From contig NC_088306.1 in the NCBI RefSeq assembly GCF_032854445.1, positions 15,743,386-15,807,385 of the forward strand: a stretch of DNA of 64,000 nucleotides, written 5' to 3'. A model generated the notes under the pieces. It worked only from the letters and a program-made list of their open reading frames with translations. It did no database searches and was not told where the DNA came from. This DNA is from Liolophura sinensis. Taxonomy: Eukaryota; Mollusca; Polyplacophora; Chitonida; Chitonidae. Below, piece after piece: positions 24,074-63,366 of the stretch. Every line of letters starts with the position of its first letter. Within the stretch, counting starts at the first letter, position 1. The position numbers were made by a program, and so were the translations under genes.

Positions 24074-27000
24074 CTGATGAATACAACACAAGTCACATAC
24101 AAACCGTCTGCATTTTGTTTTACTATGCAGTTTTCAATACAAAACTGGAAAATCCAGTCCAGAGACATTGTTTGCACACAGGTATTTCAAAAGCATTGGA
24201 ACTGGACAGTTTACAAATAGAGAGGCTGAAAACCCAAATACCTTTCCCATCTCAACGGGAAACTCGAGGACGAGCTACACAGGTCCCAGTTGCAGTAGAA
24301 CACATTATTTTCTTCTGTGATGTTGTTGCATTGCTTGTCTACTTCACATATGCTCAGCCCACATGCTTCAATAATTGTGTTTAACAAAGACAACAACAAA
24401 AGAGTTCATAGCCTTGGACCGTTTTTGTTAAAGACTGAGTTTTATGAGGTCTCTATTGTCCTTTGATATGTCATCGTTTGGAATTGGTAACATTTGTTTT
24501 TTGGTTTTTTTTCCTGTTATCTATGCAGGCGTACATGTTGTCACAACTAATGATGTTGGTACTTTTAACCTTCTTCCATATACTTACGTCTATTGCCGAC
24601 GATCCGCTCTAGTTTGTAGGTGCGCAAGCTGCCGCACTCCACTGCAATGTTTGGTCCCAGCTCGCTGAGGTCCTTCATGGGTGGGATACGAACGCGGTAC
24701 TTATGACGGACAATCACAGCATCCGGCACATAGTACCCACTCTGCAGAAATAAACATACAACATGACTGACCACCAGTGTGACTAAGTTTTCACTGATTC
24801 CCATACGCCAGAGCCCATTATAATCAAACATCTTAAGTCAAAAATTCAAATACAGCTACAAATAGAACTGTTTGCTCTAGAAAGCTACAACTTGTAAACT
24901 GATTCTTTATTGCAGAATGTACCAACCACAATTTAAGCCCTTTCCTTTGCTGATTTTGGCTTTTTAAGGATTTACAAATTATGATTTAAGTCTTAAGTTG
25001 GCTGATAAATACACCTCCAGAAAGCATTTTTTGTCTTGAATGAAAAGTGTAAATCTGAAACACAATCATTGATTTCAATGCTTTTGGTGAACATTCCTAC
25101 AGTGGTTCAAGAACAATACAACCTATACAACATTATCATGACACACTTAAGTAGCAGTCTTGTACAGAGAGAAAAACTTAAAGTTTGTGTAAATCTAAAT
25201 GGGATAAATAACATATATGGTGACCAATTATATCACTGTTCACAAACAATGCTACAAGGACCACTGTAATGTGGTAGTCATGAAAAGCAGTCGAGAGAGA
25301 CAACTTTAAATTCTGAATGTACCGACATACTGAGATAAAATTTAAAATGAATTCATTGGAATTATTAAAATGCAGTGTATCATTGTGAGCAAACAAACAA
25401 GGAGTAAAAATCTGTGTCAGTAATATAAGACATAAGAAGTTGTCAGTATACTTTAAACTATCTGCCATGCTGCATTCCTTTTATCAATCTCAACTTCAGA
25501 CACTGGATCTGACCTGCAGAAGTTGGTGCTGATTAAATGACCAGATTGGCATGTTCTGTGATTTATTATAGGATTGTCCAGTTTACATCAAAGCTGAAGG
25601 CAAAACCAGTTTATTTCCTTATTGCGAAGAAGTTTAGTTACCTTTGCAATTGAATGTTTGTTTCTCTGTGTAGGATAAAACATTGCCTAGTTGTCATGGA
25701 TTTACAGAAAATCCCATGTACTATTAATTATACGATGAAATTTAATCTCCAACAATACTTTTATTATTTTTTTTTTCCTTATTCATGTACAATTTGTGTG
25801 ATTAAAGTCCTGTCAGACTACCTAAATTCTAAAAACGTAAAAGTTCTCGCCTTACCCTCAGTTTCCATATCAGGTCAATCCAGTCCTTAGGGGGCGCCAC
25901 TAGGGTCCTGTTCAGATGCATCACGAAACATCGCTGCTTGTCTCGGTCCACAATGGCAGTGAAGTTCTGCAAATACCATGTTAAACATATTACATACAAC
26001 TTACATACTGGACTACAACATAGTTCTGCAGAAATTTGGAAATCAAATGCAAACGTATAAGATTTGATCTTACAGTATTAAATGTATGTGTTCAATGTGG
26101 AACTAATGGCTGTTATACAGACACATCTAAAACCACACTGCTGCAATAGGCCTCCTCTGAATTACCTCCCTTGTTATACCACGGCCATTATGACGTAACA
26201 GGCGTTTGAGGCATGAAACTGCGAGAAGTGGGACCTCACCTATTAAAGCATGCAGTATGTACAAGTAGCTCATGTCACAATAGTGACAAATACTTTCTGG
26301 GCAACAGAATGTAAAAACGCAAGTCTCACAAACGTCGCAAGATCTTTAATGAAGTCCATTTTTTTCCCATTGAAACTGTCTACTGTATTTAATTAGCACA
26401 ACGATTTAAACATTACCTCTGAATTTTGCAAAATTAAAATCTGTCATAAAGCTAGGTCTTCCAATAGTTCCTGCCCCTTTATCTCCACGACTTGCCATTA
26501 GCCATTTCCTGATGTCCCACCAAACCACAGCTTACTCCTTACAACCCACTTTGTAAACAGCAGTGACCTCAAGGGAGGTGCAACGGGTATCTAGAAGGAC
26601 ACATACTTACACTTTCAAAATCATGCAGTACCAGTGCCTTTTCGCACTCATCAAACTCCGGCACCTCAATCTTCTCCAGTCTGTTGTTGGTCACTTCTAC
26701 TGACTCGCTCATGTAACGATACTTCTTCTGCTTGTGATTTTTCTGCTCCTTCATGCGATGGTATTCTGACTTGGGTTGTCCGTCCTGTTCTAGCTCAAAT
26801 TCACTTTGGTCATAATATCTCACTCCATATACACCATAGGTAGCCTGCAAATGGCAATGAATCAATGATAGTGATCAAAACCAGCCTTAAATGCTCTACC
26901 ACATGTACATACCCCATCCCGATGTCACCAAACCAATGTTGATAGCCACACTTCATACCCACCAAAAGTAACATGCAAATCTGAATGAATCAATCAATGA

Positions 27001-30000: not shown

Positions 30001-33000
30001 TCTGCACAAAGTGTAACAGACCCTATATTATGCTAATAAGTGTATACGCAGTGTAACAAACCTGGTGTTATGTTAATAACTGAACGCATAGTGTAACAGA
30101 ACAGGTATTATGCTAACAGGTGTCCCACATAGTGCAACAGAATGTATTATGTTATTACGTGTACATGCAGTGTAACAGAATGTATTATGTTATTATGTGT
30201 ACACGTGGTGTAACAGAATGTATTATGTTATTATGTGTACACGTGGTGTAACAGAATGTATTATGCTAACATGTGTACACAGTGTAACAGGACCTGTATA
30301 ATGGTAATACGTGTTCATGCACATGATCGTGTATGTGCACGTAAGTTACATTACACAGCAAACTGCTACAAATGTACATGTTTCTGAAATCTCCCAGTTT
30401 CTTCTGATGCTTTACTTCGCTGGCAGGCCATTTAAAGTTGGTTGCCACGATCCTTAGTGCGGCCATACCTGGGAAGGTCTGCCAGAAACCTGCAGATGGT
30501 CATGGGATTTCCTGGGCTCTGCCCAGTTTCCTCCCACTATAAATGATGTTGGCCATCATCGTATATCAACGTATTGAAGTGAAATATTCTTGAGATCGGC
30601 ATAAAAACACCAATCAAATAAATAAATCCTTAGTTCAGTATCCAGTAACATAAAAAATTTCCCATGATAAGGTTGTACATTTTACCTCATTCTGACAGTT
30701 CTACTGATCTTAGAAAGGTGTATTAAAGTTCATTTGCAAGGTAGGATGATTTAAACAATAAAATTTCCTGACATTTTATTTTAAGTTTCTAAAAATGCAC
30801 TTTTTATTATTAAATTTTAGGTTATTTACTGTATGTACTGTCAGATAAAAGATATTCTTAGTAAGCTTCCTACATCATAAACATTTTGCTGAGTGTAAAT
30901 GTAACTTTTGCAACTTCTGGAAAATGTGCGGAAAACGGTTTGTTTTCTGCCTCAGCCTCAGCATTAGCCTGCCACAAGGTGTACAAGGTACAAGTATGTC
31001 CCATAAGGACACATCACAACATTCACTGATGATACCCCACTGGATGCCTTACTCGTAACTCAGGATTTATTGCCTTGGGCAGTAATTCAATGAGTGAAGC
31101 TAACAAATGCTTTGGCATTATTCCAGCAAAACTGCACAATGTACATATACAGAAAACCTCTATGCTGACATCATACAGTAATCTGAACCTGTGTCATTCA
31201 ACATCACATCGGGCTACTTGTTGTAGAGAACTTTATAGAGAAGACTTTGTTCTGGAGGGTGTACTAGTTATCAAAAGGATTGACAGCATTCTAAACATAC
31301 CTTGTGCAGAATCTGAAATCTTTATTATTAAACTGGAGTGTCATTACGCTTCTTTAAATTTTCTTAATGGTCTGCCATTTAAAAGTTGCATCTCCGGCTT
31401 GACCACACAATCTATCAGTCTATCATTCAGGGAGATACAGTCAATTTAAATATGCTTATTTAAAATGTCTTTCATCCGACACTCAAAAATTATTTCAACA
31501 ACACTCACATTTACATGACGTATGAGCAAATAGTAAAATTTGGCTGAAGTTCCCCAAATATGAAAGATCTTAATAGTTAAATACCAAAGTTTTTGGGTTA
31601 GCCCCCACTTACATGTATGCCCTCTTCAAAATTAGGGGTAGAAAATGTAGAGTAACATCGGTACATGTACACTGTTTTTAACTTGAAGTATGTTCTTTTG
31701 AAGAGCTTCATGATTCTTTCGAGTCGGTGAAGTTGATGATAAAACTTCCAAAATTCATGATCATTACATTTTGTGTCCTTACAAACTAGTAAACCTTCAC
31801 CATTGCTGCTCTCAATGCATCTAAAGGTCCTCAGGGTTATCCGACATTTAGTTGTGGTCTGCCATTTAAAAGTTGCATCTCCGGCTTGACCACACAATCT
31901 ATTAGTCTATCATTCAGGGAGATACAGTAAGTGATGATGTAGGTATGGCTATAAACTGACTGACCTTGTTTACCAAGTGTCTATACAGGTACACAATATC
32001 TAAAGTACAGTTAGTAAGTTGTGATGTTGGTATGGCTATAAACTGACTGACCTTGTTTACCAAGTGTCTATACAGGTACACAATATCTAAAGTACAGTTA
32101 GTAAGTTGTGATGTTGGTATGCCTATAAACTGACTGACCTTGTTTACCAAGTGTCTATACAGGTACACAATATCTAAAGTACAGTTAGTAAGTTGTGATG
32201 TAGGTATGGCTATAAACTGACTGACCTTCTTTACCAAGTGTCTATACAGGGACAGTGTCTATACAGGGACACAATATCTAAAGTACAGTTAGTATGTTGT
32301 GATGTAGGTATGGCTATAAACTGGCTGACCTTCTTTACCAAGTGCCTATACAGGGACACAATATCTAAAGTACAGTTAATAAGTTATGATGTAGGTATGG
32401 CTATAAACTGACTGAGCTTGTTTACCAAGTGTCTATACAGGTACACAATATCTAAAGTACAGTTAGTAAGTTGTGATGTTGGTATATCTAGCTGACTGAC
32501 CTTGTTTACCAAGTGTCTATACAGGGACACAATATGTAAAGTACAGTTAGTAGGTTGTGATGTTGGTATATCTAGCTGACTGACCTTGTTTACCAAGTGT
32601 CTATACAAGTACACAATAAAGTAAAGTACAGTTAGTAAGTTGTGATGTTGGTATATCTAGCTGACTGACCTTGTTTACCAAGTGTCTATACAGGGACACA
32701 ATATCTAAAGTACAGTTAGTAGGTTGTGATGTTGGTATATCTAGCTGACTGACCTTGTTTACCAAGTGTCTATACAAGTACACAATAAAGTAAAGTACAG
32801 TTAGTAAGTTGTGATGTTGGTATGGCTATAAACTGACTGACCTTGTTTACCAAGTGTCTATACAGGTACATACTATCTAAAGTACAGTTAGTAGGTTGTG
32901 ATATTGGTATATCTAGCTGACTGACCTTGTTTACCAAGTGTCTATACAGGTACATAATATCTAAAGTACAGTTAGTAGGTTGTGATATTGGTATATCTAG

Positions 33001-36000
33001 CTGACTGACCTTGTATTCCAGGACAAGGTGTCTGTACAGGTACATAACATCTAAAGTACCGTTAGTAAGTTGTGATGTTGGTATGGCTATAAACTGACTG
33101 ACCTTGTTTACCAAGTATCTATACAGGTACACAATATCTAAAGAACAGTTAGTAAGTTGTGATGTAGGTATGGCTATAAACTGACTGACCTTGCTTACCA
33201 AGTATCTATACAGGTACACAATATCTAAAGAACAGTTAGTAAGTTGTGATGTAGGTATGGCTATAAACTGACTGACCTTGTTGACCAAGTGTCTATACAG
33301 GTACACAATATCTAAAGTACCGTTAGTAAGTTGTGATGTTGGTATGGCTATAAACTGACTGACCTTGTTTACCAAGTGTCTATACAGGTACATAATATCT
33401 AAAGTACAGTTAGTAGGTTGTGATATTGGTATATCTAGCTGACTGACCTTGTATTCCAGGACAAGGTGTCTGTACAGGTACATAACATCTAAAGTACCGT
33501 TAGTAAGTTGTGATGTTGGTATATCTAGCTGACTGACCTTGTGTTCCAGGACGAGGTGTCTGTACAGGTACATACTATCTAAAGTACAGTTAGTAGGTTG
33601 TGATGTTGGTATATCTAGCTGACTGACCTTGTGTTCCAGGACGAGGTGTCTGTACAGGTACATACTATCTAAAGTACAGTTAGTAGGTTGTAATGTTGGT
33701 ATATCTAGCTGACTGACCTTGTGTTCCAGGACGAGGTGTCTGTACAGGTACATACTATCTAAAGTACAGTTAGTAGGTTGTAATGTTGGTATATCTAGCT
33801 GACTGACCTTGTGTTCCAGGTGTCTATAAAAGTACATAATATCTAAAGTACAGTTAACTGACTTACCTTGTGTTCCAGGTGTCTGTAAAGGTAGATACCT
33901 CCAATGATCCCAGCTGCCATGACAACCAGTGCTAGGAACACCACGATGACATTTGCACAGGCACGGGAACGGCGAGGTCGCACGAAGATGTATGCAGGCG
34001 TTTGGGGTGCAGCCTCTTTGTTCTCATCAGTCTACAGAAAAAACAAACAAACAATCTGTGAACAATAAAGTTTGACTTCAGTTAGAATCACTTTTGAGAT
34101 GGAGCACTAGAAATTACATGTACATGTACATGTATACATGGAAGCCTCTGTGGTTCAGTTGGTTAGCGCGCTAGCCCCTCACCAATGCAGACACTGTGAG
34201 TTCAAGTCCAACTCATGCTGGCTTCCTCTCCGGCTGTACGTAGGAAGGTCTGCCAGCAACCTGTGGATGGTCATGAGTCCGCCGGGCTCTGCCCAATTTC
34301 CTCACACCATAATTCTGGCCGCGGTCGAATAAGTGAAATATTCTTACGACGTAAAACACCAATCAAATAAGTAAATAAAATAAACATACATACTTAAAAA
34401 CCTTTACTTTTACCTTTGCCTTTATTCACTTGGAGCTTCAGTATGACATCATATGCAGAGGAATGTAAAAGCTTACTGTTCATGACATGTATTATGACGT
34501 AATACGGCTAAACTCAGATTGGAACATCATGAAACAAACATTTCTTTTTCCACATCATAGCATCTAAGTGTAAAACATCAAAAATGGAAGAAGAAAAAAA
34601 AGCGATATCCATAAATTGTGCGAAGTAGCACGTTATTCACTGAAGGAAATTCTGATAGTTCACCTTTACATTATAGACCATAGAAGTCAATCTGACGTAA
34701 ACAAACACAAATTCTTTTAATTATAGAAATAAACGGCATGAAATGACATCATTCGGGGAGGTGAATGTACCGTCTTGTGTGTTGCGTGCTACACTTGAGA
34801 CTGTTTGAAAGGTCATCACTATTTAACATGTATATTTGCAAACAGCCCACAGCTAAGATTGGGGTAAAACTGAAAAAACCTGGCTACACTGCATACTGAC
34901 AACAAAGTTTGCATCTTCAATGAGATAAACAAATCATGTTAGCATCATTTTCATAATCATCATATGCACATATATCCCACTGTGAAAAGTGCTTTAGTGA
35001 TTGAAAAGGTTGAATATTTATTTAGTCTCTTGTTTTTCTGTCAATTCAGCGGACTCCTGGTACAGTATGTTTAATAACGTTGAGCACTGACATGATTATA
35101 ATACTGACACATTTCTATTGCATTACATTCAGCATTACATAAAAATGCATCACCAAAACAGGGCTAACTTGTTCCCTATACAGACACATGTACATGTTGT
35201 ATATGTATCACACATATACAGTAAGACCGTCACATTTGAAGCATAACAAACATTGGACATAAATCACACAACCTTGTAGAAGCGTGTCCGTCTGGTTTCT
35301 GTGTGTACATTGTATATTAACAGTTATAACGTGTACCTGTCCTATTTTCATGTATATGTATGTACACACACACACAGCAGCTGTCCTGTTTGCCACGAGA
35401 GGACAATTTATTTATTTATTGGATTGGTGTTTTATGCGGTACTCAAGAATATTTCACTTATACAACAGCAGCCAGCCAGGATTATGGTGGGTGGAACCAG
35501 GCAGAGCCCGGGGGGAAACACCCACAACAATCTGCACTTAGATGGCAGATCATCCCACTTATGGCTGGAGAGGAAGCCAGCATGAGCTGGACTTGAACTC
35601 ATACTGGCCGCACTGGTGAGAGGCTCCTGGGTCATTGCGCCCATGTTGGCGTGGTAACCTCCTCGGCCATGGAACGCCCCCCTACTTATTTCAGTCAAAT
35701 TTTTACATATCTACAGGATGACATTTGTGGCTCTGGTAGAATTCATGATTAACTTCCCCATATTGCACACTTAACTACACGTCTCAAAATTAAACACGTG
35801 TCTATCTCTCCCAGTTAGGCGCAATTTCCTTGTGACAGAGCTACAGCTGAAGAGATGACTGCTCTGGGACTTCATTTCTACAATTCTAACATGGAGAAAA
35901 ATAGTTTTATTTTGTGGACAGTTAACAGGTAAAGGAGTTGTGACAACCCAATTGAAAATTTAATTCTGAGCCGTGTTAACCCTCCAGGTATTTACTGTAC

Positions 36001-41546: not shown

Positions 41547-41639
41547 GTACAACATCTATGAGGAGGACGGTTCCATCCAACATGCATTGGTGTTCCTGAA
41601 ACCTACGAGCCGGATGTATTTGTTTGACCAAGTTGCACG
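41547..41639 (+). CDS. PHD-like gene exon A
   Basis: Enters in phase 2, reads RYNIYEEDGSIQHALVFLKP and on to FDQVAR, donor GCACG|gtaagt. An acceptor 7 bases upstream (ctgcag|gtaccag) is the alternative. The preceding array is made from this exon's start. Confidence 0.62.
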
Positions 41640-47885: not shown

Positions 47886-48261
47886 TAGGCACATTTTATA
47901 TAGATGCCGGGGGAAACCACCGTCCTGCACCCGATACCAAGTACCTGTATATTGTATAGTCCTATAGGCCTATGGACCCCATGTCGGGAAAACGGGTCTG
48001 GAGAGGCCGTGGGCTGTTGTATTCTTATGATATAGAATACCTTGTCTTATTCATCATCTGTCGTTGATAGTTCGATAATTTATACCGATAATTTACCTGT
48101 TGTCGATAGTTCGATAATTTGGAGAAGCGCTGTAGTAAATAAAATTTAAGTTAATGGTATGAGATATACAGTGATATAATCCGTATGTCTTTTTAATGAA
48201 CACAAATGTGTAACTATAATCATCCCACTACTTTGCATTTCGCGCCATATGTGTGGTCATG

Positions 48262-49922: not shown

Positions 49923-52900
49923 GGTATTGTAATTTGCCACTTTGCAGCAAACTTTTCTCCCTTTTTTAACGTTGTTAATCATGTACTTGACTCCATTCGG
50001 ACTTTGTGTCTCTTCCCCTGCACTTTGCTCGTTTTCCTCCCACCATAATGCTGGTCAAAGTCATATAAGTGAAGTACTTTAGAGTAGGGCGTAAAACACC
50101 AATCAGATTAATAAATATTTGTACCTTCACACCTCTCAAAGACAACCTCCAACCCTCCCTCCCTCCTCCACCTCTAAATCTGACGTGTGCTTCTGTGTGA
50201 TTGTCTCTCTTTAGCTATAAAGCTGTGTTCTGTTTTATGACAGATAACCTGGCCTTCCTCTATGCTCAGAGACTTGCCCTCAAAATGGAGGTTCCCTTAC
50301 AAGTGTTTTCTGTGTGATTGTCTCCCTTAAGCTAAACTAGGCCTTCCTCTACACTCAGAGACTTGCCCTCAAAAATGGCGGTTCCCTTACACGTGTGTTT
50401 CTGTGTGATTGTCTCCCTTTAGCTATAAAGCTTTGTTCTGTTTTATGGCAGATAACTAGGCCTTCCTCTACGCTCAGAGACTTGCCTCAAAATAGAGGTT
50501 CCCTTACACATGTGTTTCTGTGTGATTGTCTCCCTTAGCTCTAAAGCTTTGTTCTGTTTTATGGCAGATAACTGGGCCTTCCTCTACGCTCAGAGACTTG
50601 CCCTCAAAATGGAGGTTCCCTTACACGTGTGTTTCTGCTTGGTTTCCGAAGTTTCTGAAGCAACTATTCGACACTTCGGCTTCATGTTGAAAGGCCTACA
50701 AGAAGTTGAGCAGGTACTATAGATTACTGTCATTATCTGAAAAGGGTATGGAAACAGTAAGTTGTAATGGTTTGTATATGAATGTAGATATTTCTTGAAA
50801 CAGGCTCTAGGTGTTTGTACATGTATTTGATTGACAGGAATGCCAACGGCTTGACATTCAGTTTCATCTCCTGATTGGCTATGCTCAGGATGTCCTGCCG
50901 GACTTTGTAGTCAGTCACAAGATTATGGGCGTGGTCACAGATTTCAGCCCCCTGAGGGTTCCCATGGAGTGGGTGGAGAATGTGAGGAAGAACCTGCCAA
51001 AGACTGTTCCGTTTTGTCAGGTAAGATAGCTTTTGGATGCTATTTAATAAGATCACACTTTGGATGTGAAAATTAACATATTGCATCATCCAAACACACG
51101 ACTTGAAATAAGCTGCCAACGATCGTTCACATTTATACAGAGAGGTTACTCGATGACAAATTTTCTGTGAACGATCTTTTGTTCGCTGAAGGCAAACTGA
51201 CTAAACGGTAGAAAAACAAAATACTATATACTTTGAATGACTAAATCTGTTGGAAGAGCTGGGCTATGCTATGTGTCGACAATTAATTTCCTATTCTAGT
51301 CGTAATTTTCTTTCCAATCAAAAGGGTGGTAAATCCAAGTCCTGGTGATTGAAAACTTTAACTTAAAAGTTGATGCATCAAGCAACTATTATGAGGCACT
51401 GCAACTGGACTTTGTGATGCCATAGAAAGGAGATTAAAATCAAATTAATAAATGCAGTTACCTTCATGTATCGAGACATTTGTCTCTCGATAATTAACTT
51501 CCTGCTTTTCGAATCTTCTTCACAGTCAAAGTCTCTTATAAAATCCTAAACCGCATTGTTTGAAAACTAGAACGTGGTGCATGAGGCCAGTGGCGTGAAG
51601 CACATCTAACACGTGGTCAGTCAACTAGTTTAATATTTACATCGTCACAAGACCTAGTTAAACCATTCCGGAATATAACTTTTTATTTTATGGTTTTCTG
51701 ATATCAGTATAAAACATAAGATGAAATAAATTTTACATACATCACAAAAAATTAACATTTAAAATAAAATTTAAAAATATAAAAGCCAAATAACTCTGAG
51801 AAAATAATTTCCAACTTATGTAAGTACTTGGTGTTTAACGTCATACTCAAGAGAATTAAGAATAGAGATTAAATGCCATATCATTGGATGCTATGTTATC
51901 ATACCCTCGGATAATGGGGTTTAATTAGGCTGTTCAATTAATCTAACATACGGGGTTACAGGTGAACATAATGCTGTAACCTACAAATAGGGTACTGGTG
52001 TGAGGTCTTATTTCAAGATGTACAAACAGTGCCTAATATTTTTAACTTGATCGGAGCAACCCCTGTAAGTATATTTATGAGATGTCAGCAGTTGTAAAAT
52101 TTTGGCTCTGGTAAACTGATTTCAGCGTTGGACTGCCATTTTAAACTCTGAAATAGGAGTGAGAAAAAAAAAAAAAAAAACCCATAAAAAAGGACATAAA
52201 CCAGCTTCAACATAGAATTAAGAACTGATGTAGTTCAACATGTACAATGTTCATGTCAAAAAGATCAATCAATGATTATCTTCTCTTTAACATTCATTAA
52301 AACTGACACTCTCAACTCCCACTTCCTTTACCTTTCATTACAGATCTGACCAGTGTAAGTACATGTAGTACCTGGACTGTTAAAACTTTTTAGCAGTAGT
52401 ATCTTTCAGAACTAGATTCCCACAATATTGCATCGAAACTGGCTATCAGTCAGTTCAGGTGTCATTCTCTCTCACCGATAGATGCCCACAATATTATACC
52501 TTGCTGGGAGGCCTCACCTAAACTGGCTATCAATCAGTTGAGGTGTCATTCTCTGTCACAGGTAGATGCCCACAATATAGTGCCCTGCTGGGAGGCCTCG
52601 CCTAAATTGGCTATCAATCAGTTGAGGTGTCATTCTCTGTCACAGGTAGATGCCCACAATATAGTGCCCTGTTGGGAGGCCTCACCTAGACTGACTATCA
52701 ATCAGTTGAGGTGTCATTCTCTGTCACAGGTAGATGCCCACAATATATTGCCCCGCTGGGAAGCCTCACCTAAACTGACTATCAATCAGTTGAGGTGTCA
52801 TTCTCTGTCACAGGTAGATGCCCACAATATATTGCCCCGCTGGGAAGCCTCACCTAAACTGACTATCAATCAGTTGAGGTTTCATTCTCTCTCACCGATA

Positions 52901-55900
52901 GATGCCCACAATATTGTGCCCTGCTGGGAGGCCTCACCTAAACTGGCTATCAATCAGTTGAGGTTTCATTCTCTGTCACCGATAGATGCCCACAATATAG
53001 TGCCCTGCTGGGAGGCCTCATCTAAATTGGCTATCAGTCAGTTGAGGTGTCCTTTTCTGTCACCCATAGATGCCCACAATATAGTGTTGCTGGGAGGCCT
53101 CACCTAAACTGGCTATCATCAGATGAGGTGTCATTCTCTGTTGCAGGTAGATGCCCACAATATTGTACCTTGCTGGGAGGCCTCATCCAAACTGGCTATC
53201 AGTCAGTTGAGGTGTCATTCTGTCACCGATAGATGCTCACAATATAGTTCCCTGCTGGGAGGACTCGCCTAAACTGGCTATCAATCAGTTGAGGTGTCAT
53301 TCTCTGTCACAGGTAGATGCCCACAATATCGTACCTTGCTGGGAGGCCTCACCTAAACTGGCTATGAATCAGTTGAGGTGTCATTCTTTCTCAACGGTAG
53401 ATGCCCATAATATAGTGCCCTGCCTGGAGGCCTCGCCTAAACTGGCTATCAATCAGTTGAGGTGTCATTCTCTGTCACCGGTAGATGCCCACAATATATT
53501 GCCCTGCTGGGAGGCCTCATCCAGACTGGCTATCAATCAGTTGAGGTGTCATTCTCTGTCACAGGTAGATGCCCACAAGATTGTACCTTGCTGGGAGGCC
53601 TCACCTAAACTGGCTCTCAATCCGTTCAGGTGTCACTCTCTATTACAGGCAGATGCCCACAATATAGTTCCCTGCCTGGAGGCCTCACCTAAACTGGCTG
53701 TCAGTCAGTTCAGGTGTCATTCTCTGTCACCGATAGATGCCCACAATATAGTGCCCTGCTGGGAGGCCTCATCTAAACTGGCTATCAATCAGTTGAGGTG
53801 TCATTCTCTGTCACAGGTAGATGCCCACAATATCGTACCTTGCTGGGAGGCCTCACCTAAACTGGCTATCAATCAGTTGAGGTGTCATTCTCTGTCACAG
53901 GTAGATGCCCACAATATAGTGCCCTGCTGGGAGGCCTCATCTAAACTGGCTATCAATCAGTTGAGGTGTCATTCTCTGTCACAGGTAGATGCCCACAATA
54001 TCGTACCTTGCTGGGAGGCCTCACCTAAACTGGCTATCAATCAGTTGAGGTGTCATTCTCTGTCACAGGTAGATGCCCACAATATCGTACCTTGCTGGGA
54101 GGCCTCACCTAAACTGGCTATCAATCAGTTGAGGTGTCACTCTCTGTCACAGGTAGATGCCCACAATATCGTACCTTGCTGGGAGGCCTCACCTAAACTG
54201 GCTATCAATCAGTTGAGGTGTCATTCTCTGTCACAGGTAGATGCCCACAATATAGTGCCCTGCTGGGAGGCCTCATCTAAACTGGCTATCAATCAGTTGA
54301 GGTGTCATTCTCTGTCACAGGTAGATGCCCACAATATCGTACCTTGCTGGGAGGCCTCACCTAAACTGGCTATCAATCAGTTGAGGTGTCATTCTCTGTC
54401 ACAGGTAGATGCCCACAATATTGTTCCTTGCTGGGAGGCCTCACCTAAACTGGCTATCAATCAGTTGAGGTGTCATTCTCTGTCACAGGTTGATGCGCAC
54501 AATATAGTGCCCTGCTGGGAGGCCTCACCTAAACTGGAGTACGGAGCCAGGACCATCAGGAAGAAAATTCACGACCAGTTGTCTGGTTATCTGACAGGCT
54601 TCCCTCCAGTTTGCAAGCATCCCTACAAGGCAGAGTTCAAAGCTGAGGTAAGTGAGGATGTCTTTGTTGTCAGCCAGTTTTACCTGGCCAAGATACTAGC
54701 AGCATGAGCTGGACTTGAACTCACCATCACCACATTTGTGGGAGGCTCTTAGGTCTTTGCGCCGCGCTGGTACGCTCAAATGGTCATTCACTTTGTAGCT
54801 GCTTGATGAAAACAGTGTGAGATGTTAAGGGCTCAACTTTAAGGGTTGTCTGGTCATCAGAGACAACTGAATTCGCCTGCAGACAACCATAAAGTCCCGT
54901 CACACATGTAAAATAACCTGCGCTAGACGAAAAATCAAACCTGAGAAGCTACATGTATTTTTGCAGGTGTCACGGCCATTTTTGCGGGAGTCACGGCCAA
55001 TATGACAGAAGCATGTTCAGATTTACCATACATTGCTGTGTTGCCACCCTCCACCATGTTAAAACAAAACTGTCCTCATTAAAGTTTGGTACTAACCGTG
55101 ATCCCAACTCTCCTCCCACCTGGTATCCCCGTTCAAACACCCAGCCTGGATAATTATGTTCACGCCCCCATGTCCTGGTGAACAACCCCACGTTGTCTAG
55201 AGTGGACTTCATGATGTTGTCCTCTGATGACAGGGCTTCAGATTACACACCACATGTACTTTCCAATGTAAATGTTATGCTCGAACAACTCTCAGCTCAG
55301 CACAAATTGAGTCACCAATAACCAGAGCCCTCTTATAAACAGTTACAAATCTCTCTTTGTTTATAAAGTTAAATTTACGAAATCAAATTCAGAATATTTT
55401 TGTGCTGGACACAAAATTTTGATGGGCAAATTTCACTCTTCCCATGACCATCATGTTATCCTGGTTCACAGGCACCATCACTACATTATGCTATGTTAGC
55501 TGGGAGACACATGGTCCTTTTGGTCAGTAAATAAACCCAGCAGGAGCCAACCAGATGTCTTCAGAAAATGAGTTTCTTAGACAGGGCTCACTGATAATGC
55601 CATTACGGATTAAACAGTGAACTCGCCAAGTGTTGCAATCTTATCAAAGCTCACGTGTTAGAAAAAGTGTTCACAAGTTTGAAATTTACATGTAGTTTTC
55701 AAAATGTTTAAGTGGGATTTAAGTGCGAAATTATTTTTGCCACAAAGTCATTAATGCTATAATTTATGGTCGGCTTCACTGAAGTTGTCATCACCTCTGA
55801 ATTTCTGTTTCAACAACAACATATACATGCGACTCATGCCTTCATCTGTAAGCACTGGTTTCACTTTCAGATGCACAAGTGTTTTACATGTAGCACTAGC

Positions 55901-58900
55901 CACTCAAAAATATCACTGTGCAGCCTGGTGTCATGTGATATATTTCAGACACCAGAACACTCACTTGTAATAAGTGTAAATTTTTTTGTTGTTGTTGGTT
56001 ATTTGGTTTAATACCATGTTGGGAAAATAGGTATACATGTATCAATCTATTGTGCACAAAACTGTCCAGGCAACCAATTTCTGTGTCAGTTTCAAAGACA
56101 GACTATGGTTTGTCCAGGAAAAATCCTTAAAATTGAGCCCTGGTTATTGTTTGCTTGTGAATTCTGTCTCTACAGAACTGCAGAGTATTTCATCGATGAA
56201 AGCTGTTTTATGATATCTCCACAAAGCCATATTATCCGCTGATATCCTTACCAACAGAACAGTGATATTAAAAAGGCCAGTATAAGGTGCCTCTTGTACG
56301 GGATAAGCTTCCAGTAACTTAACAGAATTTTTACTTAATGGTATTATCCACTGATATCCTCACCAACAGAACAGTGAAAGTAAAAAGGCCAGTATAAGGT
56401 GCCTCTTTGTGCAGGATAATCTTCCAGTAACTTAACAGAATTTTTACTTAATGGTATTATCCACTGATATCCTTACCAACAGAACAGTGATATTAAAAAG
56501 GCCAGTATAAGGTGCCTCTTTGTGCAGGATAATCTTCCAGTAACTTCGCAGAATTTTTACTTAATGGTATTATCCACTGATATCCTTACCAACAGAACAG
56601 TGATATTAAAAAGACCAGTATAAGGTGCCTCTTTGTGCAGGATAATCTTCCAGTAACTTAACAGAATTTTTACTTAATGGTATTATCCACTGATATCCTT
56701 ACCAACAGAACAGGGAAAGTAAAAAGGCCAGTATAAGGTGCCTCTTTGTGCGGGATAATCTTCCAGTGACTTCACAGAATTTTTACTTAATGGTATTATC
56801 CACTGATATCCTTACCAACAGAACAGTGAAAGTAAAAAGGCCAGTATAAGGTGCCTCTTTGTGCAGGATAATCTTCCAGTAACTTAACAGAATTTTTACT
56901 TAATGGTATTATCCACTGATATCCTTACCAACAGAACAGTGATATGAAACATGTCAAATGAGGATAAGCGTTCAGTACCTTTGCGGAATTTTGACTGAGC
57001 CTGTTATTAAAACTATTGTGTTTTCCTTAAATCACATACGTGAAAACCATCTGAAATTTGAAATATTAAAGGGTAGACCATAAAATCCCAGTGAAACCAA
57101 TAAATAAGTGGGTCTTACTTTGTTAGCTGTTCATAAGGCTGTCCTTTAAAAAATTTTCATTTTGTATAACCTAAAAAAAGTAGTGTGGGTTGACAAAAAC
57201 TTAAATCAGTAGGGCCTTTTTTGGAGGGTCAGTGGGATTACGCCCATTAAAATACATTTTTAATGATGGTCCCAGATCTGAGTTTAATCAGCCTTGTTCA
57301 TTTTCAGCCCATTGACTGGGAAGCTGCAGAGGCAAGTCTAGAAGTGGACCGATCCGTTACTGAGGTGGATTGGGCCATTCCAGGGACAGAGGGGGGACTC
57401 AGAATGCTGGAATCTTTCTGCAATAAGAGGTTGAAATATTTTAATGCTGATAGAAACAACCCAAACAAGGCAGCACTGAGTAATCTGTCCCCATGGATAC
57501 ATTTTGGTGAGTGCCTGAAAGTTACTTTTCCTGATGAAAATATTTTTAGCTCATATTTGAACAAAAGTGATGCTTTTGGTTGCAGGGTGTATTTTATGTA
57601 AAGCCCCCCCCCCCCCCCCCCAACCTAAAAAAAATCTTTAATGTGCTGCTTGTTCAATACACGTAGATCTGTATTTGAGACTGAAAGAATGGATGAGGTG
57701 GTTAACCTGCCAGCACAGCGCAATGAACCAGTTCAAATCTGCAGCAACCTGTGGATGATCTTGAGTTCCCCCCTGGCTCTTTCCGGTTTCTGGCCGCCAT
57801 CGTTTGACGTGAAACATTCTTGAGTATGACATAAACACCAAGGAAATAAAGTAGACTGAAAGGATAGAAACTGTATTCTTTAAAAATTCTTTCCCCTTAC
57901 GAACACTTCTTACAGTTTCCCCTTCCAAAGTTTCTTTTCACAAACTACTCTTTACCTACAGTTTATCCTTCCAAAGTTTCCTTTCACAAACTGTTTCTCC
58001 TCACATAAAGTTCCCCTTTCAAAGCTTCCTTTCCCAAACTGCTCCTCCTCACATAAAGTTTCCCCTTACAAGGTTTCCTTTCCCAAACTGCTCTTTACAT
58101 ACAATTCCCTTCCCAAATCTTCCTTTTTTAAACTGCTCCTCCTTACGAACAGTTAACTCTTCGAAAACTTTGTCTTTCAAACTGCTCCTATTACAAACAG
58201 TTAACTCTTCAAAAACTTTCTCTTTCAAACTGCTCCTCCTTGCGAACCGTTTACCCTTCCAAAGTATCCTTTCACAAACTGGTCCTCCTTACCCATAGTT
58301 TACCCTTCCAAAGTTTCCTTTCACAGACTGCTCCTCCTTGCGAACAGTTTACCCTTCCAAAGTGTCCTTTCACAAACTGCTCCTCCTTACCTATAGTTTA
58401 CCCTTCCAAAGTTTCCTTTCACAAACTACTCCTCCTTGCGAACAGTTTACCCTTCCAAAGTTTCCTTTCACAGACTGCTCCTCCTTGCAAACTGTTTACC
58501 CTTGCGAAGTGTCCTTTCACAAACTGGTCCTCCTTACCTATAGTTTACTCTTCCAAAGTTTCCTTTCACAGACTGGTCCTCTTTGCGAACAGTTTACCCT
58601 TCCAAAGTTTCCTTTCACAGATTGCCCCTCCTTGTGAACCGTTTACCCTTCCAAAATGTCCTTTCACAAACTGGCCCTCCTTACCTATAGTTTACTCTTC
58701 CAAAGTTTCCTTTCACAGACTGCTCCTCTTTGCAAACTGTTTACCCTTCCAAAGTGTCCTTTCACAAACTGCTCCTCCTTGCGAACAGTTTACCCTTCCA
58801 AAGTTTCCTTTCACAGACTGCTCCTCCTTGTGAACTGTTTACTTTTCCAAAGTGTCCTTTCACAAACTGGTCGTCCTTACCTATAGTTTACCTTTCCAAA

Positions 58901-61900
58901 GTTTCCTTTCACAGACTGCTCCTCCTTGCGATCTGTTTACCCTTCCAAAGTGTCCTTTCACAAACTGGTGGTCCTTGCGAACAGTTTACCCTTCCAAAGT
59001 GTCCTTTCACAAACTGCTCCTCCTTGCGAACAGTTTACCCTTTCAAAGTTTCCTTTCACAGACTGCTCCTTCTTGCGAACTGTTTACCCTTCCAAAGTGT
59101 CCTTTCACAAACTGGTCCTCCTTACCTATAATTTACCCTTCCAAAGTTTCTTTTCACAGACTGCTCCTCCTTGCGAACAGTTTACCCTTCCAAAGTGTCC
59201 TTTCACAAACTGCTCCTCCTTACCTATAGTTTACCCTTCCAAAGTGTCCTTTCACAAACTGGTGGTCCTTGCGAACAGTGTACCCTTCCAAAGTGTCCTT
59301 TCACAAACTGGTGGTCCTTGCGAACAGTGTACCCTTCCAAAGTGTCCTTTCACAGACTGGTGGTCCTTGCGAACAGTGTACCCTTCCAAAGTGTCCTTTC
59401 ACAAACTGCTCCTCCTTTTGTACAATTTCACCTTACCAACTGCTTCTTTGCCGTTTTGTTTGCAGGCCAGATTTCTGTCCAGCGATGTATTTTGACAGTG
59501 AAGGAATATCGCAGTAAATACAAGGAGAGTGTGGACGGCTACATTGAGGAGGCTGTTATTCGTAGAGAACTGGCTGACAATTTCTGTTTTTACAACAAAA
59601 ATTATGACAAGATTGAAGGTACATTTACTGGTAGATGTATTACCTGAGGTGTGTGATTCCAGGCCTTAACAGTCGATTTAATTGGAATCAGAGTTTTGGA
59701 AATTGCCGTAAAATTTTTTTTGAAAAAAGAGGTAAATAAATTTCATTAATACCACTTTCATGCTGAATATTTTTGTCGACAAAATATCATCTTAGCAACT
59801 CTCTAAGATGGATAAAACTCTCAGATCAATCAATAAATTTGATTGATTAATTGATTGAAAGCATGTTTGTTTGTTGTTGTTTTTTTAATAGATGGGAAGT
59901 GATGTTTGTTCTTATTTTATTTTTATAGGTTTGTTTTTAAATTCAACCTTTGTATATGTCCAGTTAGCTACTTGAAGGAATCATTATCATGAAGTTTGTC
60001 TACGATGATGTTTGTCTACGATGACGTTTGTCTACGATGTTTTGCTGTCAGGTGCTTACGACTGGGCAAAGAAAAGTCTAGAGCTGCACAAGGGAGATAA
60101 GCGTGAATATTTGTACAGTCGAGAGAAGCTGGAGGCGGGCAAAACTCACGATGATCTCTGGAACGCTGCTCAGGTATTATACATGGAATAGTAGGGGAGC
60201 TCTGAGAAACGTGAACTTATCAACTCGAGGTCAAATTTTAAACAATAAGTGTTTAAATACTTGTGAGGAACTAGCTACATCTGAAAGGCACTTGTTAGGC
60301 TTGAAAGCCAGGTAATTTGAAGCTGGAATTTTGTAGATGTCCTCGCTCTCATGGTTTGTTGTATTTTGGTGAAAATAAGCGTTGTACAACAGTTGTAAGG
60401 GTGTGTGTGTGTGCAGTCTACCATGTGTTAAAGACCACTTGTCTTCCACCAGTATGGTGAGCTTATCTGTACCTCACGTGTGGGAAAGTTTGTCAAAACT
60501 TGCCAAAGGTCAATCGCTTGTGCCTAACATTCCAGGTTCCTTCAATTATCAAACTGTCCAAATTCATCTGTTTCACTCAAGCATGAAAACAGTGTTTTGT
60601 TTTATTTTTATCCGTATCATGTAAATATGTGAAGGTTGGAGATCAGAAATGCTCAAGCAGGCTGAATGGTTTTGTTTCTCAGATCCAGATGGTTAGAGAA
60701 GGCAAAATGCATGGCTTCCTGAGAATGTACTGGGCCAAAAAAATCTTGGAGTGGACTGAGAGTCCTGAACAGGCATTGGTTGAAGCAATTTACTTGAATG
60801 ACAAGTACGAGTTAGATGGGAGAGACCCGAATGGTTATGTGGGTGAGTACTGAACAGGTGTTGTTAGAAGTGATATATCTGAGACCCGAATGGTTATGTG
60901 GGTGAGTACTGAACAGGTGTTGTTAGAAGTGATTTGTGTGAATGACAAGTATGAGTTAGACGAGAGATACCCGAATGGTTATGTGGGTGAGTACTGAACA
61001 GGTGTTGTTGAAGGTGATTTGTCTGGATGACAAGTATGAGTTAGATTAGAGAGACCCGAATGGTTATGTGGGTGAGTACTGAACAGGTGTTGTTAGAAGT
61101 GATTTATCTGAGACCCGAATGGTTATGTGGGTGAGTACTAAACAGGTGTTGTTGAAGGTGATTTGTCTGGATGACAAGTATGAGTTAGATGGGAGATACC
61201 CGAATGGTTATGTGGGTGAGTACTGAACAGGTGTTGTTAGAAGTGATTTGTGTGAATGACAAGTATGAGTTAGACGAGAGAGACCCGAATGGTTATGTGG
61301 GTGAGTACTGAACAGGTGTTGTTAGAAGTGATTTATCTGAGACCCGAATGGTTATGTGGGTGAGTACTGAACAGGTGCTGATAGAGGTGATTTGTCTGAA
61401 CGAGGAGTTAGACAAAAGAGATTGTATTTTGAGGTTGTGTGTGGTTTGTCTGTAGTGATTACTTTTTTATTTGTATTTTCAGGTTGTATATGGTCTATTT
61501 GTATCATTGACAGAGAATATGTATTTTCAGGTTGTACAGTACAGCCAGATCTTAACCATCAATCTTACGCCCATTGTGGCCGGTCGGCGTATGATACACA
61601 GACCATGCACCTTCGTGCGCCTAGACCGTGACGCAATCTTCCAGCCATCATATGCTGACCCTCGGTGAACTGTTAGCGGCCATCGGCCCATAATCATCAA
61701 ATGTTTTAAAGCTAAATACAGATCGATTTCCTGTAAACTGTCATGTCTGTTAAGAACACAGTGATGGCTCGCAGCATATTTACTTGCACACAAATTTCAC
61801 ACAAAGGTCGAGTTTTAATAGCTTACTGTTTGGGAACCCTGCTGTTTTGGTCTGCCACCCATATAGATGTACATGTACACCGTTCCTTTGAGGACAGGGG

Positions 61901-63366
61901 GATTCACGTTTGTACTATGCATCTCAAGTATACAATATTTTGTTTTAATATAAATTACTTCACTAATTATTAAATAATAAGCCTACATAGAGGCATTTGT
62001 GGCTGTTTTATGTGCCGACATATATATGTATATGCAACTCATTGATGTCTCTGAAGTCTGCACTCTACACGGTGGCTCTATACAACCGTGACGGCGTTTT
62101 AGAATTTGGAAACGAACTTGAGTTCTTTCACTTATCATAAATTTATCACAGTTTCATGTTGGAGACAAAATTGTGCTGGAATATTTGACTTTATTGTGTG
62201 ATGTGTGTCAGTCTGCGTGCTTATATATTCTTAAAAAACCTCTGTTGAAAATGTATATGTAATGAGTTATATCAGTACACCATCAAGACCTACAATTTAT
62301 AAAAGTCGAACTGCTGATGCGTATAAACACCAGCAAGTTAATATTTTTCCCTTTAATCTTGAGTCCCTAAATTGAATCCCTGGTTTCATAATTGTCGATC
62401 CTATCGTTTAATAATTTTATATGTACAAAAGCGTGTTTGTTATATGACAAACATAATCCTATGTAACCTTTATATACGCATGAAGACATGCGATGTAAAC
62501 CCTAAGCCTGTATATATAGATGCACCCTAAATCTTGCATAAAATGAAGCTATAAAATGTATTACATATTTTGAGAATATTCCTCCACCATTCATACATTA
62601 ATTATGAAAATACACCCAGGAAAGTAAAAGTCAAAACTGAAGATTTTTGGTACCGGTAAAAAAGAAATCTATTGGCACAGTTACAGTCCAGTTTTTTGCT
62701 TTTTACTTAAGAATAGCCTAATTAAATTGCCTTTCATGAAATATCAGCCTCGTCTGTGCACACGTTATATTCAAAATCTGTAATAAAGTTGTAAAAATTT
62801 ATAGGAAAAGTTAGGCGAATAATGCAAGGCCTACACTGCACATGTACATCTGATGTTGTTACATCAAACTCCAGCGAGTGAATAAATGACGTAATATGAT
62901 ACACTAACCATGGTGCTACGATGTATGGACTGTCTGCAGACTGGGGCCGACCCTACGCCAATGGTAGGCAGAGGGTGATGGTGTGTTTGATCAGGGACCA
63001 GCCAGGGTTGGGGTATAGTGGGCATCTATACATGTACCGTCGGACCACAATGGGCATAGGATTGATGGTTAGGATCTGGCTGTACTGTATTTGTGGTATT
63101 CGCATGGTATTTGTATTTTCATGCTATATGGGGTTTATTTGTGGTGTTCATGGTAGTTGTATATTCAGGTCATATGTGGTCTTGTTTGTGGTATTCACAC
63201 AGTATTTATATTTTCAGGTTGTATGTGGTCTATTTGTGGCATCCACGACCAGGGCTGGGCAGAGAGACCTGTCTTTGGAAAAATCAGATACATGAACTAC
63301 AATGGCTGTAAGAGGAAATTTGACGTCCCTGAATTTGTCCGTCAATACAAGGCAAAGAAAGCTTGA
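49508..63366 (+). CDS. phr: Class II CPD photolyase, nine coding exons
   Basis: Repairs UV-induced cyclobutane pyrimidine dimers with blue light and FAD. Exons: 49508-49922, 50568-50713, 50838-51020, 54489-54647, 57308-57506, 59466-59618, 60052-60173, 60683-60842 and 63218-63366. All joins are in phase provided exon 1 ends at CAG-G (see the splice-donor finding). The product is about 561 residues from the first ATG, or 522 from the internal M40. The N-terminal half is the Rossmann-like antenna domain ([29 protein letters not shown]). The C-terminal half is the helical FAD domain with class II signatures: [68 protein letters not shown], and GRDPNGYVG joined to [17 protein letters not shown]. 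Class II is clear; class I, DASH and cryptochromes lack these blocks. Confidence 0.97.
50028..50117 (+). mobile_element. SINE 3' fragment in photolyase intron 1
   Basis: ttttcctcccaccataatgc through gtaaaacaccaatcagatt; body end and tail only. Confidence 0.78.
50205..50567 (+). repeat. Tandem copies of the photolyase exon 2 acceptor region, 3 copies plus the exon
   Basis: Units contain ttctgttttatggcag and about 57 exon-like bases (ataactaggccttcctctac, gcccctcaaaat-type, ggttcccttac), then intron cttttctgtgtgattgtctc. Copies start at about 50243, 50330 (partial, acceptor lost) and 50450, ahead of the true exon at 50568. Period about 118. Confidence 0.92.
50568..50713 (+). CDS. phr: Photolyase exon 2
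   Basis: Acceptor ttttatggcag, donor GAGCAG|gtacta. Completes D139, then [28 protein letters not shown] and [17 protein letters not shown] of the Rossmann-like domain. Phase 0 out. Confidence 0.95.
50838..51020 (+). CDS. phr: Photolyase exon 3
   Basis: Acceptor tttgattgacag, donor TGTCAG|gtaaga, 61 codons. Reads [20 protein letters not shown] then [15 protein letters not shown]. Confidence 0.96.
51021..52429 (+). other. Photolyase intron 3, left part, no feature
   Basis: AT-rich; an 18-base A run at 52164-52181. No exon recognised. Confidence 0.5.
52430..54488 (+). repeat. 84-bp array derived from the photolyase exon 4 acceptor, about 25 copies
   Basis: Each unit has intron tcaatcagttgaggtgtcat then tctctgtcacag and 47 exon-derived bases (gtagatgcccacaatat to aaactgg). 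Unit translation is [16 protein letters not shown] plus [12 protein letters not shown]. From 53289 to the true exon the array has no stop in the exon's frame. Copies from 53760 on are nearly identical; left copies are more diverged, and a short deletion near 53093 breaks the frame. Confidence 0.97.
54489..54647 (+). CDS. phr: Photolyase exon 4
   Basis: 53 codons, phase 0 on both sides; acceptor tctgtcacag, donor GCTGAG|gtaagt. Reads [20 protein letters not shown] then [15 protein letters not shown]. The true exon is told from array copies by the continuation [11 protein letters not shown]. Confidence 0.96.
54696..54775 (-). mobile_element. SINE head fragment just after exon 4
   Basis: agcatgagctggacttgaac then gtgggaggctcttaggtc; tRNA-like head on the minus strand. 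Confidence 0.75.
54776..56194 (+). other. Photolyase intron 4, left part, no feature
   Basis: No exon recognised. A short pair (agtcacggcc / tcacggccat) sits near 54970. Confidence 0.45.
56195..56950. repeat. 113-bp tandem repeat in photolyase intron 4, about 6.5 copies
   Basis: ggtattatccactg recurs at 56340, 56453 and 56566. The unit contains gatatccttaccaacagaac and gcctctttgtgcaggataat. It has no exon 5 sequence, so unlike others it is purely intronic. Confidence 0.93.
57308..57506 (+). CDS. phr: Photolyase exon 5
   Basis: Acceptor ttcattttcag, donor CATTTTG|gtgagt; phase 1 out. Reads [20 protein letters not shown] and [19 protein letters not shown], conserved class II blocks. Confidence 0.97.
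57604..57621. repeat. Poly-C tract (18 bases)
   Basis: Uninterrupted C18 about 100 bases after the exon 5 donor. The opposite strand is G18 and could form a quadruplex. Confidence 0.95.
57690..57852 (+). mobile_element. SINE fragment in photolyase intron 5
   Basis: ttcaaatctgcagcaacctg then cattcttgagtatgacataa; internally deleted plus-strand copy. Confidence 0.75.
57875..59440. repeat. 49-bp pyrimidine-rich array before photolyase exon 6, about 30 copies
   Basis: The unit is tttacccttccaaagtgtcc plus tttcacaaactgctcctcct and tgcgaacag. The left third is degenerate. Since 49 is not a multiple of 3 and the unit has no stops in any plus frame, long open frames run in all three plus frames; these are not genes. 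The array continues almost to the acceptor (last partial unit ends gttttgtttgcag). Confidence 0.95.
59466..59618 (+). CDS. phr: Photolyase exon 6
   Basis: Acceptor ttttgtttgcag, donor GATTGAAG|gtacat. Reads [20 protein letters not shown] and [19 protein letters not shown]. Phase 2 bases in, phase 1 out. Confidence 0.96.
59995..60041 (+). repeat. Short tandem repeat (3 copies) abutting the exon 7 acceptor
   Basis: gtttgtctacgatgat recurs three times and ends about 10 bases before the acceptor tgctgtcag. Confidence 0.88.
60052..60173 (+). CDS. phr: Photolyase exon 7
   Basis: Acceptor tttgctgtcag, donor GCTCAG|gtatta. Reads [20 protein letters not shown] and [13 protein letters not shown]. Confidence 0.95.
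60683..60842 (+). CDS. phr: Photolyase exon 8
   Basis: Acceptor ttgtttctcag, donor TATGTGG|gtgagt. Reads [20 protein letters not shown] and [14 protein letters not shown]; core of the FAD site. Confidence 0.97.
60843..61400 (+). repeat. Array derived from the photolyase exon 8 donor, about 7 copies
   Basis: gacccgaatggttatgtggg then tgagtactgaacaggtg recurs after the exon. Each copy has the exon's last 14 or more bases plus the intact donor GTGG|gtgagt; longer units also carry aatgacaagtatgagttaga from further inside the exon. Two unit lengths (about 60 and 85 bp) alternate. Confidence 0.95.
61420..61536 (+). repeat. Copies of the photolyase exon 9 acceptor (left part)
   Basis: gtattttcag|gttgtatatggtctattt repeats the true junction atattttcag|gttgtatgtggtctattt, at about 61426 (acceptor gag), 61491 and 61531. 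The set resumes at 63088 on the other side of a transposon. Confidence 0.88.
61537..63087. mobile_element. 1.55-kb non-autonomous transposon with TIRs, TA-flanked, inside the exon 9 acceptor repeat
   Basis: Left end CAGTACAGCCAGATC (61537) and the reverse complement of the right end (63087) agree over about 43 bases with about 4 differences. Both are flanked by TA, as for Tc1/mariner-type insertion. Outside the TAs, the sequence joins gttg to tttgtgg, restoring the local repeat gttgtatttgtgg. No transposase frame inside, so non-autonomous. Open frames near both ends are TIR sequence. Confidence 0.82.
63088..63217 (+). repeat. Copies of the photolyase exon 9 acceptor (right part)
   Basis: Units such as ttgtatattcag|gtcatatgtggtcttg and gtattttcatgctatatggg precede the true exon and share its first about 30 bases (ctatttgtggcatccacg-like). 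Spacing about 52 bases. Confidence 0.88.
63218..63366 (+). CDS. phr: Photolyase exon 9 (last)
   Basis: Acceptor ttatattttcag. Completes G513, then [20 protein letters not shown] and [19 protein letters not shown], ending YKAKKA TGA. Class II hallmark C-terminus. Confidence 0.97.

What the first reader, a model, noticed from the sequence alone, without database searches (positions are those of the whole stretch)
26880..63217. Minisatellites built from exon-intron junctions at seven splice sites in three neighbouring genes
In ITM2, the PHD-like gene and the photolyase, arrays beside exons have units that cross the splice site: intron end, AG or GT, and 15-60 exon bases. Donor type: ITM2 exon 2 and photolyase exon 8. 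Acceptor type: ITM2 exon 3, PHD-like exon A, photolyase exons 2, 4 and 9. Unit lengths differ (about 52-131 bp) and the sequences are unrelated, so this is a recurrent process acting on junctions and not one spreading repeat. It creates rows of near-identical decoy splice sites and lengthens introns. I know of no named phenomenon matching this.
Basis: partly seen in the sequence, partly recalled or inferred. Interest (0 to 1): 0.93.

Follow-up and report, generated by a model that had tools for sequence, protein, structure and literature searches.

The report
Tandemly repeated splice junctions in chiton
In this chiton, short tandem repeats in introns sometimes include the edge of an exon, making rows of spare splice sites; the same thing was named 'mirages' in amphioxus, and here it follows from introns rich in such repeats rather than from a process aimed at splice sites.

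Summary
The genome is the chiton Liolophura japonica. Six of the seven reported arrays are real and cross a splice junction: photolyase exons 2, 4, 8 and 9, and ITM2 exons 2 and 3. The seventh (PHD-like) is an end of a dispersed mobile element with inverted 53-bp arrays at both ends.

The phenomenon is already named. Tandem repeats spanning exon-intron boundaries are 'mirages' in amphioxus globin and Adh3 genes (passages read).

I tested 201 exons (402 inferred junctions) elsewhere in the genome. Junction-spanning arrays are widespread but not enriched by coverage: 14 of 402 junctions lie in arrays (3.5%), against 11.8% of nearby intron points and 0.24% of exon-interior points. A TRF-free test agrees: 15 of 402 against 499 of 4,360; in all 15 the spare copies lie on the intron side.

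Best reading: duplications arise throughout repeat-rich introns. Those that nick an exon edge survive because the copy attached to the exon still encodes the protein; those that engulf exons are lost. A roughly two-fold pile-up of array ends near exon edges (post hoc, confounded) leaves a junction bias open.

The parts
50183..50637 (+). acceptor-type junction array, photolyase exon 2 (117-bp unit; an older copy from 50183)
   Evidence: TRF 50335-50637; earlier copy 50183-50329 (converted to window coordinates); exon starts at 50568
52436..54537 (+). acceptor-type junction array, photolyase exon 4 (84 bp x 25)
   Evidence: found only here
60760..61400 (+). donor-type junction array, photolyase exon 8 (85/144/229 bp)
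   Evidence: found only here
63088..63239 (+). acceptor-type junction array, photolyase exon 9 (46 bp)
61425..61536 (+). detached copies of the exon 9 junction unit, parted from the rest by an insertion
31926..33896 (-). donor-type junction array, ITM2 exon 2 (87 bp x 22); TRF end 33856, last copy extended by eye to about 33896
   Evidence: found only here
26744..28359 (-). acceptor-type junction array, ITM2 exon 3 (128-131 bp, plus a 402-bp two-copy duplication)
   Evidence: found only here
40863..47892 (.). dispersed mobile element: inverted 53-bp arrays 40863-41571 (+) and 46496-47892 (-) around an interior with the PHD-like frame; not a junction array of a host gene
49625..63366 (+). class II photolyase gene, nine exons; exon-attached copies encode a protein without repeat inserts
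24588..34031 (-). ITM2-like (BRICHOS) gene, exons 2-5 mapped

Best explanation
These are mirages: minisatellites whose unit happens to include an exon-intron junction. Steps: (1) a tandem duplication arises with one breakpoint in the intron and the other 9-106 bp inside the exon (depths seen in the sample; the act of duplication is inferred). (2) The array grows and shrinks like any minisatellite (inferred). (3) The copy still attached to the exon body encodes the protein; the decoys found lie on the intron side (shown in sequence). (4) Splicing keeps joining the exon-attached site, probably by exon definition, so decoys behave as intron (inferred; the RT-PCR support I saw is for amphioxus only). 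(5) Arrays that sit inside or engulf exons are removed by selection (inferred from their near-absence in exons). The seven-site impression came from a repeat-rich window plus one mobile element.
For: Coverage falls from 11-15% at 200-700 bp from the junction to 3.6% (acceptor) and 5.2% (donor) in the last 20 intron bases and 0.5% and 1.5% at 60-80 bp into the exon, with no peak at the junction (first 145 exons). 14 of 402 junctions are in arrays against 11.8% of 10,323 intron control points and 0.24% of 818 exon points (binomial P 4e-9 for junction against intron, treating junctions as independent). TRF-free: 15 of 402 junction 30-mers have a nearby copy, 499 of 4,360 intron, 13 of 794 exon. 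Crossings 14 against 13.6 by unconstrained random placement. 0 of 178 copies lie on the exon side, at 20 of 21 sites examined; the 21st had no copy at that setting. The photolyase built from exon-attached copies aligns to 3umv with no repeat insert at exons 2, 4, 8 or 9. Named precedent with regular splicing (passages).
Against: Array ends, as opposed to coverage, pile up near exon edges: 24 in -60..+60 against 25 in -400..-60, 2.6 times the density, P 0.001 (first sample). By placement, over both samples: 16 just inside the intron against 7.2 or 6.7 expected, and 13 in the first 60 exon bases against 7.5 or 6.5 (P 0.04, 0.02). The bins were chosen after seeing data, and unknown neighbouring exons inflate the effect; in the five CCT genes it is absent on the intron side (0 against 0.9), while crossings there are 3 against 0.8 or 2.0. 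A CCT exon that I had dropped has an array ending 1 bp inside its acceptor and another starting 12 bp after its donor, which would add to the pile-up. With exon penetration capped at 60 bp, crossings exceed expectation (14 against 6.5, P 0.003; 3 of the 14 are deeper than the cap), but not with a cap of 100 bp (10.2, P 0.13) or 150 bp (13.5). The window has an excess of crossings, 6 against 0.95-1.65. The long-frame sample alone is inconclusive: ratio 0.42 (0.09-1.2). No RNA was examined.
Confidence: 0.74

Rival explanations
1. Exon edges seed minisatellites: breaks, R-loops or slippage near junctions make duplications start there more often than in the rest of the intron.
For: Array ends are about twice as dense within 60 bp of exon edges; crossings exceed placement if exon penetration is capped at 60 bp; excess of crossings in the window. 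One abstract passage says significantly more tandem repeats were found near intron-exon junctions, especially in two green algae (PMC3887541).
Against: Coverage at junctions is a third of intron coverage. Ends per kb in exon bases 8-60 are 0.53 against 0.33 in intron, P 0.16. Crossings match unconstrained placement, 14 against 13.6. Post hoc bins; neighbouring exons not all known; the window was selected for the pattern.
Confidence: 0.17
2. The arrays are functional: decoy sites or in-frame repeats give regulated or length-variable isoforms. In the exon 4 array the frame of exon 4 stays open through about 15 copies (ORF 53211-54707), so an upstream acceptor would add multiples of 28 residues.
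For: The open frame; 158 of 178 copies keep the splice dinucleotide, and 98 of 102 in the sample.
Against: In the exon 4 array only 16 of 24 decoys keep AG. Units of 46, 85 and 131 bp are not multiples of three. The ITM2 exon 2 frame stops about 23 bp into the intron. Dinucleotide retention was measured on copies aligned at the junction, so it proves little.
Confidence: 0.05
3. One spreading repeat or mobile element carries the arrays to junctions.
For: True for the PHD-like site.
Against: Units of the five other arrays searched match only their own locus, and each contains part of its own exon.
Confidence: 0.02
4. Assembly artefact.
For: Tandem repeats can be misassembled.
Against: HiFi assembly with mean read 8,347 bp, 14x (PMC11068029 passages); the longest junction array in the window is 2.1 kb; copies within arrays differ from each other.
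Confidence: 0.02

Closest known systems
Mirages of amphioxus (Adh3, globins BflGb6 and BflGb9, troponin C, PGBD5)
   Same: Minisatellite-like tandem duplications of an intron end plus exon edge; donor and acceptor types; unit lengths that vary between genes; many but not all copies keep AG/GT (passages).
   Different: Here in a mollusc, with up to about 25 copies, and with a genome sample giving a rate of about 3.5-3.7% of junctions. No RT-PCR or length-polymorphism data here.
Human CBS: 31-bp VNTR c.1444_1467+7(16_21) and the 844ins68 junction duplication
   Same: A VNTR whose coordinates run from coding sequence into the intron, and a two-copy duplication of an intron-exon junction (PMC2630376 passages).
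   Different: Single human loci; with ins68 splicing favours the more distal site and removes the upstream segment.
Intron gain by tandem duplication of AG/GT (Rogers model, discussed in PMC3087553)
   Same: Tandem duplication near splice signals as raw material for new introns.
   Different: No new intron is shown here; the decoys appear to lie within existing introns.
Mobile elements with tandem-repeat inverted ends (foldback-like; name recalled, not tested)
   Same: The PHD-like site: inverted 53-bp arrays bounding a homologous interior in the three copies compared.
   Different: Target-site duplications and a transposase were not looked for, so no family is assigned.

Membership tests
mirages (exon-intron boundary minisatellites) | tandem repeat unit spans an exon-intron boundary | tested here: met
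mirages (exon-intron boundary minisatellites) | both 5' and 3' exon boundaries can be affected, in different genes | tested here: met
   window: 2 donor and 4 acceptor; sample: 10 donor and 5 acceptor
mirages (exon-intron boundary minisatellites) | many but not all copies keep AG/GT | tested here: met
   158 of 178 copies at 20 sites
mirages (exon-intron boundary minisatellites) | the copy at the cluster boundary escapes homogenisation | tested here: inconclusive
   the exon-attached copy of photolyase exon 4 differs from the decoys beside it at two silent sites; no tree was made
mirages (exon-intron boundary minisatellites) | regular splicing is not disturbed | not testable with these tools
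   no RNA reads here; the protein built from exon-attached copies is intact, with an unresolved base at the exon 1 donor
mirages (exon-intron boundary minisatellites) | length instability between haplotypes or cells | not testable with these tools
   one assembly only
mobile element (PHD-like site) | dispersed copies with a homologous interior and inverted end arrays | tested here: met
   (two other copies read)
mobile element (PHD-like site) | target-site duplication and its own transposase | not tested
   not looked for

The most novel reading that the evidence does not exclude
Exon edges are preferred places for minisatellite birth in this genome: duplications start within about 60 bp of exon boundaries two to three times more often than elsewhere in introns, for a mechanical reason such as R-loops or splicing-linked breaks, and only shallow exon overlaps survive.
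Probability: 0.17. Interest if true: 0.72.

Novelty: new member of a known kind. Interest (0 to 1): 0.4.

Why it matters
In the passages I read, mirages are reported from a handful of amphioxus genes, with single comparable human loci. Finding them in a mollusc, at 3.5-3.7% of 402 sampled junctions, suggests that animals with repeat-rich introns may have many (inference). They are natural experiments on how the spliceosome picks one site among near-identical ones, and raw material for intron growth and gain. The coverage test shows that the obvious inference, a process aimed at junctions, is not needed.

Tried and rejected
Rejected: a junction-targeting process as the main explanation (coverage tests); a single spreading repeat, except for the PHD-like site; an assembly artefact. 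Tried without result: splice-dinucleotide retention as a sign of decoy function (0.89 kept against 0.75 for other dinucleotides, confounded because copies were aligned at the junction and flanks outside the unit were included); searches for earlier mollusc reports (no paper; 5 papers, none with junction repeats in title or listed abstract start); the original Adh paper (not held).

Selection of the sample. From the myosin listing I used 62 of 81 matches: all 62 with no stop inside. From kinesin 88 of 132: of 90 with no stop inside I overlooked two. From kinase 20 of 138: no stop inside and open frame of at most 130 aa; long-frame kinase matches were not added. The first sample used the 130-aa limit for these three families (62 kinesin, 32 myosin, 20 kinase); since in-frame arrays lengthen frames, a second sample added 26 kinesin and 30 myosin matches with longer frames. 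From CCT 31 of 50 matches, in five genes, without filtering on stops; one match of those genes was dropped because it had a stop and ran into arrays. I later looked at that match and the two overlooked ones: none of their six junctions is crossed by 8 bp or more, but arrays abut the dropped CCT exon on both sides. They are not in the counts. Junctions are inferred from profile-match ends plus a simple splice score, not from RNA; 95 of 201 exons have strong scores on both sides, and there 7 of 190 junctions are in arrays. Searches were made after seeing the first results; one search was a first version of the window placement, with a shorter ITM2 array end (5 crossings against 0.95 and 1.68).

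Full report
What was checked. The window lies in a 609,464,459-base, 632-contig genome. Contig number and longest contig (96,433,062) match the published assembly of the chiton Liolophura japonica (PMC11068029, passages read); total length differs slightly (609,495,693 in the paper). TRF finds 25 separate arrays of period 10 or more in the window, covering 24% of it and 32% of 26.7-63.4 kb.

The seven sites. Reading the sequence confirms six arrays whose units cross a splice junction: photolyase exon 2, 4 and 9 acceptors and exon 8 donor; ITM2 exon 2 donor and exon 3 acceptor. The exon-attached copies of the photolyase give a protein that aligns with a class II photolyase (3umv) at E 6.1e-138, with no repeat insert at the affected exons. 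ITM2 is supported by a BRICHOS match. Five of the six units were searched in the whole genome and match only their own locus; the 46-bp exon 9 unit was not searched, and the tool warns that it can miss matches.

The seventh site is different. The 53-bp unit of the PHD-like site has 595 matches over the genome (a lower bound; only part of them is listed), several of them as inverted groups some kb apart. In the window the pair is 40863-41571 (+) and 46496-47892 (-). Two other copies, L099 and L100, share the interior at 91-94% identity, and both carry the same arrays, inverted, at their ends. So this is a mobile element, and its array is an element end, not a duplicated host junction. The PHD-finger match of its frame is below Pfam's cut-off (19.5 against 24 bits).

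Is there a process acting on junctions? I took 201 exons from CCT, kinesin, myosin and kinase genes across the genome (profile listings; DNA), giving 402 inferred junctions; what was left out is told under Tried and rejected. In the first 145 exons, array coverage before acceptors is 14-15% at 200-700 bp, 3.6% in the last 20 intron bases, 2.1% in the first 20 exon bases and 0.5% at 60-80 bp into the exon; after donors it is 11-12% at 300-700 bp, 14% at 200-300 bp, 5.2% next to the exon, 4.2% in the first 20 exon bases and 1.5% at 60-80 bp. Over both samples 14 of 402 junctions lie in arrays (3.5%), against 11.8% of 10,323 intron control points and 0.24% of 818 exon points; the junction-to-intron ratio is 0.30 (bootstrap over loci 0.16-0.46). 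The long-frame sample alone is weaker: 4 of 112 against 8.5%, ratio 0.42 (0.09-1.2). A test without TRF, asking whether a 30-mer centred on the junction has a copy with at most 6 mismatches within 900 bp, gives 15 of 402, against 499 of 4,360 intron and 13 of 794 exon 30-mers. In all 15 the extra copies are on the intron side, and 98 of 102 copies keep the splice dinucleotide; four of the 15 junctions have weak splice scores (2.0 or less). In the window, junctions are in arrays no more often than circular shifts predict.

What speaks for some junction bias. Counting ends instead of coverage, exon-ward array ends are denser near exon edges: 24 in -60..+60 and 25 in -400..-60, a density ratio of 2.6, P 0.001 in the first sample. 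By placement over both samples there are 16 just inside the intron against about 7 expected, and 13 in the first 60 exon bases against about 7. The density of ends in exon bases 8-60 is 0.53 per kb against 0.33 in intron, P 0.16. Crossings number 14 against 6.5, 10.2, 13.5 or 13.6 expected when exon penetration is capped at 60, 100 or 150 bp or not at all; observed depths are 9 to 106 bp, 11 of 14 at most 44 bp. A CCT exon left out of the counts has arrays abutting it on both sides. These tests were chosen after the first results, and exons outside the cut pieces are unknown, which itself pushes ends toward known exons. The window alone has 6 crossings against 0.95-1.65 expected but was reported because of them.

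How it most likely works. A tandem duplication whose breakpoints fall on both sides of a junction leaves one complete exon, still attached to its splice site, and a spare junction in the intron. Further copies enlarge the intron. The protein is unchanged if splicing keeps to the exon-attached site; exon definition would favour it because only that copy lies at exon distance from the exon's other splice site. The geometry is shown here; the splicing step is inferred. Arrays inside exons are almost absent, as selection would produce.

What is known. Passages of the amphioxus globin paper (PMC3087553) describe tandem repeats spanning exon-intron boundaries, of donor and acceptor type, termed 'mirages', reported earlier in Adh3, with RT-PCR results suggesting that regular splicing is not disturbed; a passage of the PGBD5 paper (PMC3902484) adds troponin C and PGBD5. 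The original Adh paper was not held. Passages of PMC2630376 name a human CBS VNTR of 31 bp written c.1444_1467+7(16_21), so across an exon end, and a junction duplication (844ins68). One abstract passage reports more tandem repeats near intron-exon junctions, especially in two green algae (PMC3887541). Searches found no paper; others (12 of 36 listed; 5 of 5; 8 of 34) listed no mollusc paper on junction-spanning repeats by title or listed abstract start.

Verdict. Real and common in this genome, a new taxon for a known kind, with the proposed mechanism not supported by coverage and only weakly suggested by array ends.

Noticed in passing
window 61535-63088: An insert of about 1.55 kb with 53-bp inverted ends (89% identical) sits inside the exon 9 junction array and splits it, which suggests that the array is older than the insertion.
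   Followed up: partly
window 40863-47892; L099; L100: A dispersed element, 7 kb in the window and at least 7.1 and 9.5 kb in the two other copies as cut, whose ends are inverted 53-bp minisatellite arrays. Window 43806-44089 is missing from L099 but present in L100; 44679-44878 matches neither and coincides with the window's 200 N.
   Followed up: partly
window 49915-49930: The photolyase exon 1 donor reads CAGGGGTATT, one G too many for the frame expected from exon 2; possibly a homopolymer error or an odd donor.
   Followed up: no
window 15252-15769, 57912-59417 and 59989-60039: Three arrays end about 12, 48 and 12 bp before an acceptor (the first a likely one, gene not identified) without crossing it.
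   Followed up: partly
L001, L002: CCT genes carry clear donor-type junction arrays (66, 107 and 109-bp units), good targets for an RNA check. A further exon in L001 has a 41-bp array ending 1 bp past its acceptor and a 27-bp array starting 12 bp past its donor.
   Followed up: partly
window about 6000-7100, 16100-17000, 34100-34400, 35300-35700, 42900-43100 and 50000-50200: A short dispersed repeat recurs, recognisable in translation by frames like [20 protein letters not shown].
   Followed up: no
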